Origin: Polyrhizophydium stewartii
Lineage: Eukaryota > Chytridiomycota > Chytridiomycetes > Rhizophydiales
DNA length: 12,906 nt
NCBI GenBank assembly: GCA_027604665.1
Contig: JADGIZ010000495.1
Span: forward strand, 1 to 12,906
Direction: 5' to 3'
This document shows, one piece after another, positions 3,088-12,906 of this stretch. The notes beneath the pieces are model-generated. The model was not told the DNA's origin, ran no database searches, and saw only the letters and a list, made by a program, of their open reading frames with translations. The first letter of the stretch is position 1, and every line of letters starts with the position of its first letter. The translations under genes were made by a program, and so were the position numbers.

Positions 3088-6000
3088 TCACAGCTTGGCC
3101 TTGCCCGGCGCCGCGAGCTTGAGCACCTGCTCGAGCTTGGTCGCCAGACCCATGTTGCCCTTGATCTTGATCTTGCCGGACATGAACATCTTCTGGGCGT
3201 TGCTCGTGCCCGCGGCAATGTCGAGGAAGTCCTTGTCGGCAATCGCAATGGTCATGTCGACCTTGCCGGCGGGCTTGCCCGCGCCGACGCTGCCCTCGCC
3301 GTTCTTGAGGTCAACAAACCACGACTGCGTGCTGCTGCCGTTGCTGATGTCAAAGCCAAACACGGCGTTGGTCTTCTTGACGAGAGCGCTGCGCGCGGCC
3401 GACGGCGTCGACTTGATGCCGGCCTCGACCTGCTCAAAGATCTTGGACGACGCGAAGCCGGGCACCGACACGCCCGCGGCGGCAGGCGCCGCGCCAGAGG
3501 CCGCGCCAGCAGACGCGCCGCCGGCGAGCTCGACGGCGGCGTTCGAGATCACAACCTCGTTGCGCTCAACAACCTTGACGACAAAGATGACCTTGTTGCC
3601 CTCCTTCCACATGTGGGTCTCGAGCGTCTCGCCGGGGAAGACGTGCTTGGCAAAGCGCACCTTGATGGCCTTGAACTTGGCCGGGTCGTTGTTGCAGAAG
3701 GTCGCGAGCACGTGCTTGCCGGCGATGCCGAACGTGGCGAGGCCGTGCAGGATGGGCACCTTGAAGCCGCCCATGGCCGACATCTGGGGGTCAATGTGCA
3801 GCGGGTTGTAGTCGCCCGACAGGCGGTAGAGCGCGGCCTGGTCCTCCTGCGTCTTCTCGCGCACAACGTGGTCCGGCGCACGCTTGGGCGGCTCGTTGGC
3901 GGCCGTGGCCTCGCCGCGGTCGCTGTCCTTCTTTCCGCCAAAGCCGCCCGAGCCGCGGATGAACATGGTGAACTCGTTCTCGGTGACAATGTCGCCCGAG
4001 GCGTCCTTGGTCGTGACGCCGACAATGACCGAGGCGCCCTTGCCCTTGTCAAGAATGTCGATGATGCGGCCAGTCGACGTGAGCTTGCCCGAGGTCGCAA
4101 GAGGCTTGTGAATCTTGAGGTACTGCTCGCCGTGCAGGAGCATCATGGGGTTGAAGTCGGGCAGGAAGTCGCCAAAGCCAACGTTGCGGATCTGGTAGTC
4201 GAACGCCGGGATGACGCCGAACGTGGGCAGGGCAATGAACTTGTCCGCCGACTCGTAGACGAGGTGCAGGTCGGTGCGCTTCGCGCCGACGCCGAGGTTG
4301 TACAGAATGACATCGCGTTCCGTGTACTCGAACGAGCCAGACTTGAACGCGGCGGCCTTGGCGCCCTCGACATTGACGCCGCCCTTCTTGGCACCGCCTG
4401 CAGCGGCGCCGGCGCCAGTGTCCTTGTTGTCAAAGTTGGCCTGCACGGCCGCGAACGAGTCCTGGGTCGAGATCGGGTGCGTGGCGCGGCCGTCGTTGAA
4501 GTTGGTGATTTCGGCCCAGCGCGAGGCAATGTGCTCGGGCAGCAGGGGGCGGTTGATCGGGAAGCCGACGCCGCCCGTGCGCTGCCAGCGGACCTTGGCG
4601 ATCCAGCCCGAGCCAACCTCGAAGATGGACCCGGTCTCCTTGCACGACTCATGACCAAGGAAGGCGACCAGCGGCGCAACGTAGTCGGGCTTGAGGGCCT
4701 CAACCATCTCGGGCGGCATGACGGTGGCCGTCATACGCGTGCCGGCGTTGGGCGCAATCGTGTTGGCAATGATGTTGGACTTGCGGCCCTCGAGCGCGAG
4801 CGTGTTCGAGAACGCCACCATGGCGGCCTTGGCGGCGCTGTAGTTGGCCTGACCAAAGTTGCCGTAAAGGCCGACGGCCGACGCCGTGTTGATGATGCGG
4901 CCGTACTTCTGCTTCAGCATGTGCGGCCACGCGGCCTTGGTGACCTTGTACGTGCCGCGGACGTGCACACGGTGGACCAGGTCCCAGTCGGCGTCGGTCA
5001 TGCGCGCAAACGACTTGTCACGCAGGATGCCGGCGTTGTTGACGACAATGTCGATGCGGCCAAAGGCCTTGATGGCGGTGTCGACGAGCTTGTCGCCGTC
5101 CTCGACCGAGTCGTAGTTGGCGACAGCCTTGCCGCCGGCGGCGCGAATCTCGTCGACGACCTTGTCGGCGGCAGCGTGGGCACCGCCGACGCCAGTGTGG
5201 GAGCCACCGAGATCGTTGACAACGACCGAGGCGCCGAGCTTGGCGAGGAGCAGGGCGTAGATGCGGCCAATGCCGTTGCCAGCGCCTGTGACGAGGGCGA
5301 CGCGGCCGTCAAAGCGCAGCTCGCCCGGGTTGGGGTTCTCGCGCAGCGACCTGGCCTTCTCGAGCAGGCCGATCCAGTCCGTGTCCGCGAGCGAAGCCGG
5401 GTAGTCCGGGTTGGTGAAGTCGGTGATCTCCTTCCACTTGGCGCCAACCGACGCGGGCGTGAAGGTCGAGTCGGCCTTGAAGACGGCGCCCTTGGAGCGC
5501 TCCCAGCGGAGCTTGCCGACCCAGCCGGCGCCAACCTCAAAGAGCGAGCCGTTCTCCTTGCAAGACTCGTGGGTCAGGTAGGCAACAAGCGGCACCACAA
5601 ACTCGGGCTTGAGCGCGGCGAGCACGTCGGGCGGCATGACGGTCTCGGTCATGCGCGACGCGGCGAGCGGGGCAATGGTGTTGGCGAACACGCCCTTGCG
5701 CGCACCCTCGCGGGCAAGCGTGTTGGTGAAGCCAAAGAGCGCGAGCTTGGCTGAGTGCGCAGACGCAGCGTGAGGGCGGCAGCAACGTCAGCAGCAGCAC
5801 AGTCAGGGCGAATGGCGCATCGGCGCGATCAACTCACCCGCGCTGTAGTTGGCCTGACCAAAGTTGCCGTAGATGCCAGCGGCCGACGCCGTGTTGATGA
5901 TGCGGCCATAGCCCTGCTTGGTCATGTGCTCCCAGGCGGCCTTGGTGACCTTGTAGGCGCCGCGGACGTGCACGAGGTGGATGAGGTCCCAGTCGGCGTC

Positions 6001-6493
6001 GGTCATGCGCGCAAACGACTTGTCACGCAGAATGCCGGCGTTGTTGATGACAATGTCGATGCGGCCAAACGCCTTGATGGCAGTCTCGACGATCTTGTCG
6101 CCAAACTCAACCGAGTCGTAGTTGGCGACAGCCTTGCCGCCGGCCGCGCGGATCTCGTCGACGACAACGTCGGCAGCCTGGCAGGGCACGAGGAAGCGTG
6201 ACGACGCAGCATGGCGATCGAGGTCAGCGGCGTCAGAGCGGGGCGACGTGCAAGTGCACCTGGCGCGAACGAACCCGCGAGCTGCCGGCGCCCTCGCCGG
6301 TGTGGGTGCCGCCGAGGTCGTTGACGACGACCGAGGCGCCTGGGCAGGCGGGTTGCGGGCAGCGGGGTCAGCGGCGGACGATCGGGAACAAGCTTGTGCG
6401 TCACGCGGGCGGCCGCGGAACGGTGGCCCTGGCGTGCCGCGGCCGGACGCGGGGCAACTGCTCACCACGCGAGGCAAAGAAGAGCGAGTAGGC
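3088..6493 (-). CDS. FOX2: Peroxisomal multifunctional beta-oxidation enzyme (two dehydrogenase domains, 2-enoyl-CoA hydratase 2, SCP2); N-terminus missing
   Basis: Minus-strand exons 6493-6466, 6339-6275, 6177-5838 and 5750-3088 join in frame to 1031 residues (numbered from 6493). The protein hydrates trans-2-enoyl-CoA and oxidises (R)-3-hydroxyacyl-CoA with NAD in peroxisomal fatty-acid oxidation. Dehydrogenase A (to about 230) keeps NNAG (76-79), Ser129, Tyr142 and Lys146. Dehydrogenase B (about 290-540) has the NAD motif TGAGNGIG (299-306), Ser435, Tyr448 and Lys452. The MaoC/hot-dog hydratase (about 619-886) has [14 protein letters not shown], with the catalytic Asp791 and His796 pair. 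An SCP2 lipid-carrier domain follows (about 913-1027), and the protein ends in AKL, a type 1 peroxisomal signal. Two dehydrogenases is the fungal pattern; SCP2 is as in animal MFE-2. The first 20-25 residues, including the glycine-rich TGxxxGxG motif of domain A, are not found upstream. Instead the frame runs into the neighbouring small membrane-protein gene. Domain identity is secure; the 5' end is not. Confidence 0.95.
4836..5172 (-). repeat. Dehydrogenase B copy of an internal near-identical repeat in FOX2
   Basis: This stretch aligns without gaps to 5841-6177 at a constant offset of 1005 bases. By hand I count about 35 mismatches in the first 330 positions (about 89% identity). It includes an identical run of 47 bases (4979-5025 against 5984-6030). 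It encodes the middle of the second dehydrogenase domain, from the region after the NAD motif to the catalytic YSAAK. Confidence 0.85.
5841..6177 (-). repeat. Dehydrogenase A copy of the same internal FOX2 repeat
   Basis: This is the partner of 4836-5172. It corresponds almost exactly to the third exon of FOX2 (6177-5838), which ends within NYSA|AK, where an 87-base intron interrupts only this copy. Outside the block the two dehydrogenase domains are clearly less alike at protein level. Confidence 0.85.
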
Positions 6494-6850
6494 CTGGCGG
6501 ACGAGCGGGCGGCGGGCGGCGGGCGGCGCCGCGGGCGGGCAGGCGGCCGCGGCACGCAACGCACCTGCGACCGTGAAGAAGGCTCCCAGCGGGATGGAGA
6601 CGAGGAGGAACGACTGCGCCGCGGGGCGTCAGCGCCTGCGCGGCGGCATCGCATCGGCGGGCCGGCATCGCATCGGCGGCCGCACCTTGTATGGGATCGA
6701 CACACGCTGATAGAACGGCAGCGTGCGCTGCGCAAGCAGGTGGCCGACGACGCCGGCGCTGCCCCACAGGGCCGCGGCCTTGGCGCCTTGCATGATGACC
6801 CACGAGTGCTGCTCGTCCGGGGTCTCGAAAGTGGGCGGCGGGGTGGACAT
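6462..6850 (-). CDS. Small two-helix membrane protein, 3' end ambiguous; alternatively the N-terminal part of a FOX2 fusion
   Basis: It starts at the ATG at 6850 (A at -3). Exon 1 (6850-6686) encodes 55 residues: an N-terminus beginning [14 protein letters not shown], a helix around [16 protein letters not shown], a loop with [12 protein letters not shown], then GTGCGG/CAG intron 1 (6685-6614, 72 bases). Exon 2 (from 6613) encodes a second hydrophobic stretch, [17 protein letters not shown]. If a 71-base intron (6564-6494) is removed, exon 3 reads [10 protein letters not shown] and stops at 6464-6462, giving 81 residues. If it is kept, the frame stays open and joins the FOX2 reading frame. 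The helix-loop-helix pattern, with a short charged loop before the second helix, recalls small HIG1/RCF-type mitochondrial inner-membrane proteins, a weak resemblance. The expected polar tail after the second helix is absent, so the gene may be truncated at its 3' end. Confidence 0.5.
6644..6679. repeat. Two direct copies of a 17-base unit inside an intron
   Basis: CGGCATCGCATCGGCGG occurs at 6644-6660 and again at 6663-6679, separated by GC (period 19). Both copies lie in the first intron of the small membrane-protein gene and make up about half of it, so this intron has recently grown by a short tandem duplication. Confidence 0.9.
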
Positions 6851-7652: not shown

Positions 7653-10321
7653 ATGGTCAAGAAGGTCGCCGGAGGCAAGACAAAGGACGCAGTTGCGAGA
7701 AAGCCCCCCGCAGCCAAGAAACACGGCGCGGCCAAGCCAGCAGCACAACCCGGCAAGAAGGCACGCCCGGCTGCCGCGACGCCTCGCATCACGCCGGTCG
7801 AGGATGAGGATGACCAAGACATGCCCGACGCCGAGGCCGACAACGACCAGACTCTGGAGTTTGGCGAGGACTTTGGCGACGCAGATGGCTGGGAGGATGC
7901 CGGCAGCGACGCTGGCGAGGAGCAAGACAGCGGCGCGGACGGCTCCGAGGCCGGTCATGCGCCCAAGGCGCCTGCGACCGAGGAGCAGGCCCAGAAGAAG
8001 CGCCAGGCGCGAGCAGAGCAGAGGGCCCAGACCAAGGAGCGCAAGATGCAGCGCAGCCATGCCAGCATCATCGCCGACGCCAAGGCGATCTGGGAGGAGA
8101 TGCGCGTCAAGCGCCTGACCAAGCACGAGCGCCGCGCGCACGTCGACAAGATGATGGCGCTCATCGGCGGCAAGACCAAGGAGGTCGGCGTCCTCTGCGT
8201 GCTCGTTTGCTTTTGCTTTTTTCTTTTTTCTTTTTTCCTCGCTGAATGCTGACTCTTGCATCCCGCAGCTCATCTTCAAGCACGACGCGAGCCGCATCGT
8301 CCAGTGCTGCCTCAAGTACGGCACGCCGAAGCAGCGCGACCAGATCGCCGGCGAGCTCAAGGGCACATTTGCGCAGCTCAGCCAGAGCCTCTACGGCCGC
8401 TTCATCGTTTCCAAGATCCTCAACTACTGCAGCCCAGAGTACCGCAGCGCCGTCATCAGCGAGTTCTACGGCAAGGTTCGCAAGCTGATCCGCCACAAGG
8501 ACGCGTCTCTGATCCTCGACGAGGCATATTCTCAGTTTGCAAACGCCCAGCAGCGCGCGGCGCTCATGGAAGAGTTCTACGGACCCGAGTTTGCTGTCTT
8601 CAAGAGCGTGAGTGCTGCGAGGCGAACCTTGTTCTGCCGCGCGGCTTGGCCTCTGACACATAAGCATGCAGCTCGGCGACAAGCGCACGCTGCAGTCGCT
8701 GCTCGAGTCGCAGCCTGAGAAGAAGCCCTCGATCCTCCGGCATCTTCGCCAGGCGCTCGACTCGGTGCTCCAGAAGGGCTCCTTCAGCCTGGCGCGCACC
8801 CCCATCTTGCACCGCGCCATCTTCGAGTACCTGACCTATGCCGAGCCCAAGGTCTCAAAGGACATGATCGAGCTGCTCAAGGATCATCTGGTCCACATCC
8901 TGCACACGCGGGATGGCGCACGCGTTGCGCAGTACTGCATCCTGCACGCCACGCCAAAGGACCGCAAGCACATCATCAAAACCTTCAAGGGCTTCGTTCA
9001 CGGCATCGCCAAAGAGCAGTACGGCCACGCCGTGCTGCTCAGCTGCTTCGAGTGCATCGACGACACCGTTCTGGTCGCCAAGAGTTTGATCACGGAGCTC
9101 CTGAACCCGGCCGTTGCTGCGGCGGGCGAGAGCGGTGCAGGTGCCGCTGCTGCTGCTGCTGCCGCGGCGGGCACACAGTCTGTCAGCGAGCTGCTGCGCG
9201 ATCGCTACGGCAGCCGCGTGGTTCTGTTCCTGCTCTCTGGCCGCAACAAGCGCCACCAGCCCATGTACATCATTCAGGAGCTCCAGCAGACCGACGAGAC
9301 GCGCGCGCAGACCACCAAGAAGGACGATGCCGCGCGCCGAGAGCAGCTGCTGGAGGCAACGGCCCCGATGCTGTCGCAAGCCATTGTCGAGAACCTGGAC
9401 GAGCTGCTGCGTGACCGCATTGGCGGCGTTGTGATTACTGAGGTCGTCCAGACGGCAGGCATCGACGGGGACGCGATCCGGAACGCGATTCTGGCTCTGC
9501 TCCCCAAGAGCCTTGACCCCAGCGGCATCAAGACTGTCGGCAACAAGACTACTTTCTCGGATGCCGAAGATGACGACAGAGGCGAAGTCGACGACGGCGA
9601 GGAGAGCGGAAACAAGGCGAAGAAGTCCAAGTCAAGCGAAAGCGACGGCGACGATGAGGATGACGACGAGGAGCACGAAGATACCGACGAGGACGAGGAC
9701 GACATGGACGACGAAGATAAGCCGGAAAAGCCGTTCAACGTCGTGTCCAAGCTCAAATCCGAGCGCGACGCTGCTCGTCAGGAGTCGCAGGGCCTCGACA
9801 TGCACTCGTCGCTGCTCGTCAACCGTGCGTCGACGCTCACGCTCAAGCAGCTCGTTGGTCGCGCGCAGCCGGCTGCTGCGGCTGGCAAGAAGGACGCCAA
9901 TTCCGCTGCTGATGCCGAGACGCCGGCCTGGAAGGTCTCGTTTGCGACGTCGGTCTTTGAGCTCGTCGAGCCTGTCTGGCCTCGGTGGCTCATGTACTGT
10001 GCAGAGGACCCGCTCAAGCGAACGGGCACGACGTTGATCTTTGTTGCCATGCTCGAGCTCGAGAACAAGGCGCTGACCGACCGCATCGTCAAAGCCACCA
10101 AGTCCAGCATCGACAAGGCCGCCCAGGCGGCACTCAAGTCGCAGATTGCCACCGCCAAGCAGCAAGCGGAAAAGGAAAGGGCCGAGCGCGACAAGGAGCT
10201 CGCCGATGCTGCCAAGAGCAAGGCGGCCAAGAACAAGCGAAAGCGAGATGCGGCCCACGACGCCGCACCGGCCCAACGCACTCTTGCGATTGAGATTCTT
10301 GCCGGCCACCTCAAGCTGTGA
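7653..10321 (+). CDS. PUF6: PUF6-like pumilio-repeat nucleolar protein
   Basis: Exons 7653-8183, 8269-8607 and 8672-10321 join to 839 residues. Intron 1 (85 bases) has a weak GTCGGC donor and a strong T-rich tract at about 8206-8238. Intron 2 (64 bases) has GTGAGT and a CTGAC-type branch site. The family (yeast Puf6, human PUM3, plant APUM24) binds RNA without base-specific Pumilio recognition and acts in large-subunit ribosome assembly; yeast Puf6 also represses ASH1 mRNA. Visible parts are a Lys/Ala-rich basic start, an acidic stretch (about 50-110) and a basic Gln/Arg/Lys helix. Pumilio-type repeats follow: LIFKHDASRIVQCCLKYG at the start of exon 2, GRFIVSKIL, DGARVAQYCILHA (about 370), EQYGHAVLLSC (about 405), DRYGSRVVLFLL (about 467) and DRIGGVVITEVV (about 538). 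The CPL-type C-terminal region is interrupted by a highly acidic insert (about 587-641), and the end is Lys/Ala-rich coiled coil. It is longer than yeast Puf6 (about 650 residues), mainly because of the acidic segments. Confidence 0.93.
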
Positions 10322-10448: not shown

Positions 10449-10491
10449 TTATGAGCTCAAGCGGGCGGTGCCGCTCCCGTCTGTGTCATTT

Positions 10492-10552
<61 letters not shown>

Positions 10553-12637
10553 GTCTCTCCTGGTCGCGCTGTTGCCGAGACAGCGACGCTTGCCGCGACG
10601 AGTTGAACCAGCGCACAAGCCGTCCATTCGGCCGCAGCAGCGATCTCCGGTTGGTGCCGGCGTTGCTCGGCAGAGCACTTGTTGCCGGCGCCGACGAGAT
10701 CGGCGACATGGGCACAAGGACCGGGCTGGGCTCTTGGGTCGAGGATGACGACAGATCCAGCCGCGGCGGGCCTCGAGCCGGCGAGTCTGGCGACGGCAGC
10801 GATGGTGCCGATGGTATTCCCAACGGAGATGCCTCGATGTGTGGGTAGTTCGGTGCCCGCTGCTGAGCATCGCTGCGCGGGCGTACGCGGGGGTCGAGCC
10901 AAGGAGGCAGATCGGGCTGCAAGTCGGTTGTGAAAGACGAGGACGGAGGCTCGGCGGGGCGGGCAGCCTGGCCGAGCGCGTCCTGGTTGCACACAGGGCA
11001 CTTGCGCTTGCCTTGCAGCAGCCACTCATCAACGCAGTCTGCGTGGAATCGATGCACGCAGTGGAGCTCACGGAGGCGGTCTCCGTTCTCGTAATCGCAC
11101 AAGCACAGCGCACACGTCTTGTCCGTTGTACGCTCGTGGGATTCGTCGGCAGCAAGCCCCGACGGCGCAGCAGCGGGAGCGGCCGTATCGTCCTCGGGAA
11201 CAATCACAGCCGCAGATGTCGGGCGATCGGCCTGGCGGGGGAGGTTGGATGAGACGGACTCGGTGTCCGAGCTCAGCACAATGATGACGGACGACGGCGT
11301 CGATACCGCCGGCCGGAGCGCAGGCGAGCGCTGAGGCGTCGTGTCTTGAGAGTTGGCCGCGCTATCGGCAGGAGTACCGCTCTCCTTGGGTCGCGGCTGC
11401 TGCTCGGATGCGAGAACCGTCGCCATCGACATGGCCGATCCCGCATTGGACACACCGACGTGGGTGTCGGCTGTCACAGCCGGCGGCGGTATGGTTGGCG
11501 GTGCGACGCTCGAAGGCGCCGGCTGTTGGCCACCGGCCTCGTCCGAGTAGACGAACGTGCGCAGCTGGCCGAGCTCCTCCTGCGACAAGCCTCGGTCTGC
11601 GCTCATGGGCGCCATCGGCATCGGCTGTGATGCGACGGTGTTGAGCACCTCGAACGTCCGCGCTCTGCGTGTGCGGTATTCCTGCAGCGGCTCGCCCTGC
11701 CTGCGCCATTGCGAGCGATCGACCCGGAAGGTGGGGCACGAGTCTGGCCACCGCGAGTTGTCGATCGAGAAGCCCGGGAAGCAGTACCCCTTGCTGGCTC
11801 GGTTGGCGAGGAAGACAAACGCAAACGACACGATGAAGCTGAAGTACACAATCGTCGCCGCAATAAGCTCCCACTGCGTCACCAGCGCAAGCGGGTTGCG
11901 GCACTGCGGCTCGGTGCGCACGCTCGAGATGCCGTAAATCCAGGACACGTACGCCAGCCAGTCCACCAGCGTGAACATGCGCATGCCGCACACCTGGCCG
12001 TACAGCATGTTCCCCACAAAGCCGTTCGTGAGCTCGGCCGGGTTGCGCCACTGCGATCCCGACCGCTCGAGCGCCCTGTTCGCCATGTAGTGTATGGGGT
12101 TCTTGATCTGCGCGGTCGGGCAAGCCCCAGGCGGCGGCAGCGGTGTCAGCGCTCCTGTGTCCCGCTCCACCGTGCCTGGTATGAGGGCCACCGGAGGGAC
12201 CCGGCGGCACTGGGATGTTCCGCTGGCCAGCGAGGTCTCGGCCGACAGACACCGCAGCCCCGCACCACCCCGACGCCAGCGGGCAAGGGTGCGCAGCGGC
12301 GCTTCCCTATGCCTGCCGCAGGCACTGCCCCTGCTGCCCCGCAGTGCGGCGCGGGGTGTGTGCCCAGCACCCGCAGCCCCTTGGCGAGCTCTCAAACGCA
12401 GCGGCCGGGACGCACCAGTCTCAGGCACGTCAGCGCAACGTCGAGCACCAGCCAGGAGAACGGGCCTCGGTTGTCGCTGAGGTCCCGCACGCACGGCTCG
12501 GAGCCGTAGCGTACGAGCAGGGTGACATGCGCGGCGACCAGGCCCCCGTCCCTCAGCATGCACCACGCCAGGTCGCGCAGCGAGAACGAGTCGGGCTCGA
12601 CCTTGATGGACGTGAGCCCGACCAGCACGCACGACAT
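10449..12637 (-). CDS. Multi-pass membrane RING-H2 E3 ubiquitin ligase with polyglutamine tail
   Basis: Exon 1 (12637-12416, ATG at 12637) and exon 2 (12107-10449) join in phase 0 to give 626 residues, reading LTCLRL|IKNPIHYM across the splice. Hydrophobic segments at about 60-73, 119-136 and 154-175 suggest several membrane spans. A long Ser/Pro/Ala-rich disordered region follows, then a RING-H2 finger: Cys406, Cys409, Cys424, His426, His429, Cys432, Cys444, Cys447, with Trp436 before CPVC. The spacing C-x2-C-x14-C-x-H-x2-H-x2-C-x11-C-x2-C is canonical, so it should bind an E2 and ubiquitinate targets from the cytosolic face of a membrane. The acidic/serine stretch VIIVLSSDTES could be a SUMO-interacting motif (inference). 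The tail is rich in Ser/Pro and ends with 19 glutamines (594-612). The 308-base intron is an outlier here, so a small extra exon inside it cannot be excluded. The membrane substrate is unknown. Confidence 0.85.
10494..10550 (-). repeat. Pure CAG repeat (18 units plus one CAA) coding for polyglutamine
   Basis: On the plus strand 18 uninterrupted CTG units occupy 10494-10547, followed by TTG. On the coding strand this reads one CAA then 18 CAG codons, giving 19 Gln residues fourteen residues before the end of the RING protein. A pure tract of this length is prone to slippage, so its length should vary between strains. Confidence 0.97.
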
Positions 12638-12754
12638 TTGAGGCAAGGTGCGTTCAACAGCCCAAGGCCAGGTTCATTCGAACAGGCGCATCCTGGGCGG
12701 CAGGCACGAAATATGAGGGAAGCGGGGGCGGCGTGCGCCGGTGCATGCCCGCGC

Positions 12755-12906
<152 letters not shown>

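What the first reader, a model, noticed from the sequence alone, without database searches (positions are those of the whole stretch)
6466..6850. FOX2 has no start codon, promoter or NAD-binding glycine motif of its own; the frame continues into a small membrane-protein gene
The 28-base exon 6493-6466 ([10 protein letters not shown]) splices perfectly to [11 protein letters not shown], so it is FOX2. The segment that must precede it in every such enzyme (RFDGxVxxVTGAGxGxGR, as kept in dehydrogenase B at 299-306) is not found in any minus-strand frame between it and 7640. Reading back without splicing, the same frame stays open through a GC-rich tract into [17 protein letters not shown] and, across one intron, to the ATG at 6850. 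The resulting 1126-residue fusion would be a peroxisomal enzyme with a two-helix membrane N-terminus and a crippled first dehydrogenase. The small gene also lacks the polar tail expected after its second helix, as if one deletion had removed the end of one gene and the beginning of the next. An assembly collapse in the CCGCCCGCCGCC-like tract (about 6505-6560) would look the same.
Basis: partly seen in the sequence, partly recalled or inferred. Interest (0 to 1): 0.78.

Follow-up and report, generated by a model that had tools for sequence, protein, structure and literature searches.

The report
Assembly misjoin truncating a FOX2 gene
A chytrid fungus gene for peroxisomal fat breakdown looks beheaded and fused to a small neighbouring gene probably only because this draft assembly lost a stretch at an extremely GC-rich tract; another record of the same protein has a start of its own, so this is ordinary.

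Summary
The sequence facts hold: exon 6493-6466 is FOX2, no start or glycine-motif exon lies upstream in the window, and one frame runs open back to ATG 6850 across one intron. The fusion reading is not supported. A deposited Polyrhizophydium stewartii protein (P0001, on a 103,219-base contig) is identical to the spliced window protein over all 1031 residues and adds MSDLRFDGRVVLITGAGGAASRS in front. The window's contig has 12,906 bases, so P0001 is from another assembly. The join (6494-6564) holds a 96% GC tract; places with its 16-base core lie within 200 bases of a contig end in 7 of 28 cases, 0.6 expected. The open bridge scores like intron, and 5000 of 5000 shuffles of it are open too. 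Best explanation: a misjoin or collapse dropped the small gene's tail, the FOX2 promoter and exon 1. No reads, and no DNA of the other assembly, could be seen. Loose end: P0001's glycine motif is irregular (TGAGGAAS), probably a gene-model or base error, as 9 other models of 120 break at the same point.

The parts
6466..6493 (-). FOX2 mini-exon AYSLFFASR(G), the first FOX2 exon present in the window
   Evidence: spliced product identical to P0001 from residue 24 on
6275..6339 (-). FOX2 exon (G)[21 protein letters not shown]
5838..6177 (-). FOX2 exon AADVVVDEI...QANYSA
   Evidence: adh_short match at 5839-6165
3088..5750 (-). FOX2 last exon: rest of dehydrogenase A, dehydrogenase B, hydratase-2 domains, SCP2 domain, C-terminal AKL, stop
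6494..6564 (-). suspected misjoin: 71 bases with GT...CAG ends and a 96% GC core; not coding-like
   Evidence: contig-end enrichment of its core
6502..6557 (+). extreme-GC tract; 50-base windows of at least 96% GC occur only here and at 10-61, next to the contig's left end
6686..6850 (-). small hydrophobic-protein gene, putative exon 1 (55 codons from ATG)
   Evidence: coding score positive in this frame only, 0.31 bits per codon; no homologue found
6565..6613 (-). small gene, putative exon 2 ([16 protein letters not shown] + 1 base), 3' part apparently lost at the join
   Evidence: coding score 0.24 bits per codon; one reverse frame also slightly positive, 0.09; hydropathy up to 1.47

Best explanation
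The window is one contig of a fragmented assembly of what appears to be the saprotrophic chytrid Polyrhizophydium stewartii. FOX2 (peroxisomal multifunctional beta-oxidation enzyme) has a first exon of its own. In this assembly the stretch holding the end of the upstream small gene, the intergenic region, the FOX2 promoter, exon 1 and part of intron 1 is missing. Its two edges are joined at 6494-6564 through a (GGGCGGC)n tract of about 96% GC. Shown: the missing start exists in a deposited protein otherwise identical over 1031 residues; the tract type is enriched near contig ends here; the bridge is not coding-like. Inferred: that short-read dropout or repeat collapse is the mechanism, that the lost sequence belonged exactly at this place, and that it included the small gene's tail.
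For: P0001 [Polyrhizophydium stewartii, HK105_208527], 1054 aa on a 103,219-base contig, matches 1031 of 1031 residues and adds MSDLRFDGRVVLITGAGGAASRS. The held contig is 12,906 bases, so the assemblies differ. The 22-base core GCGGGCGGCGGGCGGCGGGCGG occurs at 3 places in the held genome: here, at 8-29 of C465 and at 86-107 of C613. The 16-base core lies within 200 bases of a contig end at 7 of 28 distinct places (0.6 expected, binomial P about 2e-6) and within 500 at 9 of 28 (1.5 expected). A non-repetitive 14-mer control lay within 500 bases of an end at 0 of 4 places. Among 50-base windows only this tract and a stretch beside the contig's left end reach 96% GC. The bridge scores -0.69 bits per codon in the fused frame, against 0.24 to 1.27 for the five exons scored and -0.57, -0.78 and -0.47 for the best frames of the three introns scored. 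A long-read assembly of strain JEL0888 exists (31 Mb, 291 scaffolds; passages of PMC12204190). In vertebrates, missing sequence in older assemblies is biased towards GC-rich promoters and 5' exons (PMC9516821, abstract only).
Against: The DNA of the other assembly and the reads could not be seen, so that the extra residues lie between 6494 and 6564 is inferred. The 71-base bridge happens to have intron-like ends (GTGCGT...CAG). P0001's glycine motif is itself irregular (TGAGGAAS), so the exon-1 region may not be clean there either. Nineteen of 28 places with the 16-base core lie more than 2,000 bases from any contig end, so the tract does not always break the assembly. The distance limits were chosen after the positions were seen; the 14-mer control is small and not GC-matched; some enrichment may simply reflect GC-rich contig ends. 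The tool's own control, the same letters read backwards, is about as frequent in the genome (27 against 30 matches; 2 against 3 for the 22-mer), and where those control matches lie was not shown. In the codon score the base-frequency background came from 7630-6860 and two FOX2 introns, and exon 4 is part of the training set.
Confidence: 0.92

Rival explanations
1. A real fusion gene: the small membrane-protein gene reads through 6564-6494 into FOX2, giving a 1126-residue protein with a crippled first dehydrogenase.
For: The frame is open from ATG 6850 across one intron.
Against: Openness is not informative in this tract (5000 of 5000 shuffles open) and the bridge scores like intron. The deposited FOX2 has its own start. 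No fused protein of this species is among the 120 rows listed (of 7951 that passed; a fusion holding the whole FOX2 should rank near the top), and the length range of that search includes 1126. No protein with the small gene's words was found at 40-126 residues, and none scored E <= 1 at about 118-376 residues.
Confidence: 0.02
2. A real deletion, in the isolate sequenced here or in one allele, removed the end of one gene and the start of the other, while another isolate or allele keeps them.
For: It gives the same sequence as a misjoin; the bridge is unbroken in this assembly.
Against: All 1031 shared residues are identical, with no sign at the protein level of a second lineage. The break falls at a tract type enriched near contig ends.
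Confidence: 0.04
3. FOX2 exon 1 lies far upstream, beyond the small gene or beyond the window, and is joined to 6493 by a long intron; nothing is missing.
For: The bridge ends in CAG just before 6493, as an acceptor would. The window does not hold exon 1.
Against: Since the window does not hold exon 1, the intron would have to run past the window's end at 12906, across the small gene and the plus-strand CPL-domain gene starting at about 7653, whereas the three complete FOX2 introns here are 126, 97 and 87 bases (coordinates). The small gene would still lack its end.
Confidence: 0.02

Closest known systems
Fungal FOX2 / peroxisomal multifunctional enzyme type 2 with SCP2 domain (PF00106 x2, PF22622, PF01575, PF02036)
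   Same: Domain order and sequence; 80% and 77% identical to the Batrachochytrium proteins P0002 and P0003, 100% to P0001.
   Different: In the window the first 23 residues of P0001 are absent; the remaining 1031 are the same.
False loss of GC-rich promoters and 5' exons in earlier assemblies (PMC9516821, abstract read)
   Same: A GC-rich 5' end of a gene is missing, and the missing part is present in another assembly.
   Different: Here the edges are joined into a plausible-looking open frame instead of leaving a gap; and this is a fungus, not a vertebrate.

Membership tests
FOX2 (multifunctional beta-oxidation enzyme) | two short-chain dehydrogenase domains followed by the hydratase-2 domain | tested here: met
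   P0001: adh_short in two stretches, MFE-2_hydrat-2_N and MaoC; window: adh_short at 5839-6165 and 4729-5304, hydratase-2 and MaoC in the last exon
FOX2 (multifunctional beta-oxidation enzyme) | glycine motif TGxxxGxG at the start of dehydrogenase B | tested here: met
   TGAGNGIG at 5289 downwards
FOX2 (multifunctional beta-oxidation enzyme) | glycine motif TGxxxGxG at the start of dehydrogenase A | tested here: inconclusive
   absent from the window, where the exon itself is missing; P0001 has TGAGGAAS, which does not fit; 90 of the 120 listed relatives carry the motif in their first 110 residues, 10 break at this point, 20 show no such N-terminus
FOX2 (multifunctional beta-oxidation enzyme) | peroxisomal C-terminal tripeptide | tested here: met
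   C-terminal AKL; that AKL is a variant of the SKL signal is recalled
Assembly misjoin | missing sequence present in an independent assembly of the same organism | tested here: met
   protein level only: P0001 on a 103,219-base contig
Assembly misjoin | join falls in a tract that lies at contig ends elsewhere | tested here: met
   7 of 28 places within 200 bases of a contig end, 0.6 expected; 19 of 28 far from any end
Assembly misjoin | reads or coverage contradict the join | not testable with these tools
   no reads held

The most novel reading that the evidence does not exclude
The first dehydrogenase of P. stewartii FOX2 really has a degenerate glycine motif (TGAGGAAS, as in the deposited model), so that the enzyme relies on dehydrogenase B alone.
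Probability: 0.05. Interest if true: 0.35.

Novelty: not a real feature. Interest (0 to 1): 0.08.

Why it matters
It shows that a convincing gene fusion can come from a probable misjoin at a GC-rich tract. Extreme-GC (GGGCGGC)n tracts in this draft deserve a check before any gene loss or fusion is claimed from it. It also flags a FOX2 exon junction at which several deposited fungal gene models break.

Tried and rejected
Homologues of the small protein: none at 40-126 residues; six candidates shared words at about 118-376 residues but none scored E <= 1; no Pfam match up to E 10; none in the PDB set up to E 10; none in plasmids, where none was expected. So its expected polar tail could not be verified.

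Splicing the 71-base bridge out gives [12 protein letters not shown] and the wrong frame for FOX2, so small gene to FOX2 by splicing alone was rejected. No Rfam family reached its gathering score. A 14-base inverted repeat (6432-6445 / 6544-6557) was considered as a hairpin cause, but the single-strand DNA fold is no stronger than shuffles (z 0.05). Searching the held genome for the missing exon found nothing, but it holds 12.86 Mb against 31 Mb published for the species, so absence says little. My motif count missed relatives with LITG; it was redone and only that count is used. An earlier pattern (88 of 120) allowed only T and only the first 60 residues. Paper searches; passages of PMC11797018, which names an earlier assembly version GCA_027604665.1, were seen and not needed.

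Full report
What is there. On the minus strand the window holds a FOX2 gene. Exons 6493-6466, 6339-6275, 6177-5838 and 5750-3088 join to 1031 residues ending in AKL. The domains are those of the fungal enzyme: two short-chain dehydrogenase domains, hydratase-2, and an SCP2 domain. A six-frame scan of the window with three N-terminal motif patterns hit only dehydrogenase B (5316-5289) and an unrelated place at 1528. A protein search of the held genome with the deposited N-terminus found only dehydrogenase B and the exon at 6339-6275; a degenerate DNA pattern for RFDGRVV found nothing.

A start exists elsewhere. The best homologue, P0001, is named by its source as HK105_208527 of Polyrhizophydium stewartii, has 1054 residues and lies on a contig of 103,219 bases. 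Residues 24-1054 are identical to the window's spliced protein, letter for letter. It starts MSDLRFDGRVVLITGAGGAASRS. The window's contig is only 12,906 bases, so P0001 comes from a different assembly of what looks like the same organism. A paper reports a 31-Mb, 291-scaffold Nanopore-plus-Illumina assembly of strain JEL0888 (PMC12204190, passages seen). That P0001 belongs to it is my inference. The held genome has 12.86 Mb in 690 contigs; the contig lengths seen fall with the contig number, from 65,121 bases for C5 to 10,141 for C674. It therefore looks like the longer contigs of a fragmented draft.

The join looks technical. Among 50-base windows, at least 96% GC is reached only at 6502-6557 and at 10-61, beside the contig's own left end. 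The 22-base core of the tract occurs at three places in the held genome: here, and at 8-29 and 86-107 of two other contigs (contig starts read). The 16-base core has 30 matches at 28 distinct places. Six of 28 lie within 100 bases of a contig end (0.3 expected), 7 of 28 within 200 (0.6 expected) and 9 of 28 within 500 (1.5 expected). These limits were chosen after the positions were seen. A non-repetitive 14-mer control lay within 500 bases of an end at 0 of 4 places; it is small and not GC-matched. Against this, 19 of 28 places lie more than 2,000 bases from any end, so the tract does not always break the assembly. The same letters read backwards are about as frequent in the genome (27 against 30 matches), and their positions were not shown. 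Bias of missing sequence towards GC-rich promoters and 5' exons is reported for older vertebrate assemblies (PMC9516821, abstract only).

The fusion frame carries no weight. The bridge 6564-6494 has no stop in the fused frame, but nor has any of 5000 dinucleotide shuffles. With codon usage trained on FOX2 exons 4 and 5 (999 codons), against base frequencies of 7630-6860 and two FOX2 introns, the small gene's two exons score +0.31 and +0.24 bits per codon in frame. The FOX2 mini-exon scores +0.86 and exon 3 +0.59; exon 4 scores +1.27 but is part of the training set. The bridge scores -0.69 in the fused frame, like the best frames of the three introns scored (-0.57, -0.78, -0.47). No fusion protein of this species is among the 120 relatives listed, although its length lies in the range searched. 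The small gene's product was found in no protein of 40-126 residues or about 118-376 residues. The small gene therefore remains a prediction.

Loose end. In P0001 the conserved GLGK before AYSLFF is replaced by AASRS. Of the 120 listed relatives, 90 have the motif in their first 110 residues, 10 (P0001 included) break directly after TGxGG, and 20 show no such N-terminus. Of those ten, six go straight from the glycines to a later exon (P0012, P0016, P0021, P0037, P0086, P0117) and the others have odd residues there, which suggests a splice junction that gene predictors often miss. I read P0001's irregularity as a gene-model or base error in the same GC-rich place. A truly degenerate motif is not excluded.

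Verdict. Sequence facts confirmed; fusion not supported; assembly misjoin about 0.92. Interest is low.

Noticed in passing
P0001, P0005, P0012, P0016, P0021, P0023, P0037, P0083, P0086, P0117: Ten of 120 listed FOX2 models break directly after TGxGG, several skipping the AY-LFFASRG mini-exon: probably a short exon that is often mispredicted, mostly in chytrids (kinship recalled).
   Followed up: partly
7653-10321, + strand: Divergent gene whose 8657-10318 part has a CPL (NUC119) domain and a PUF repeat match below Pfam's cut-off; introns by eye at about 8184-8268 and near 8610-8670; PUF6-like (name recalled).
   Followed up: partly
10449-12653, - strand: Open frame with a RING finger (zf-RING_2), hydrophobic stretches before it (by eye), and a long glutamine run near its C-terminus encoded by a CAG-type repeat at about 10495-10545.
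   Followed up: partly
6432-6445 and 6544-6557: Perfect 14-base inverted repeat flanking the FOX2 mini-exon; the predicted DNA fold is no stronger than shuffles.
   Followed up: yes
1-100: The contig's left end is itself an extreme-GC stretch (first 100 bases 85% GC), like the suspected join.
   Followed up: yes
6850-6565, - strand: Putative small gene with two hydrophobic stretches and coding-like codon usage; no homologue found.
   Followed up: partly
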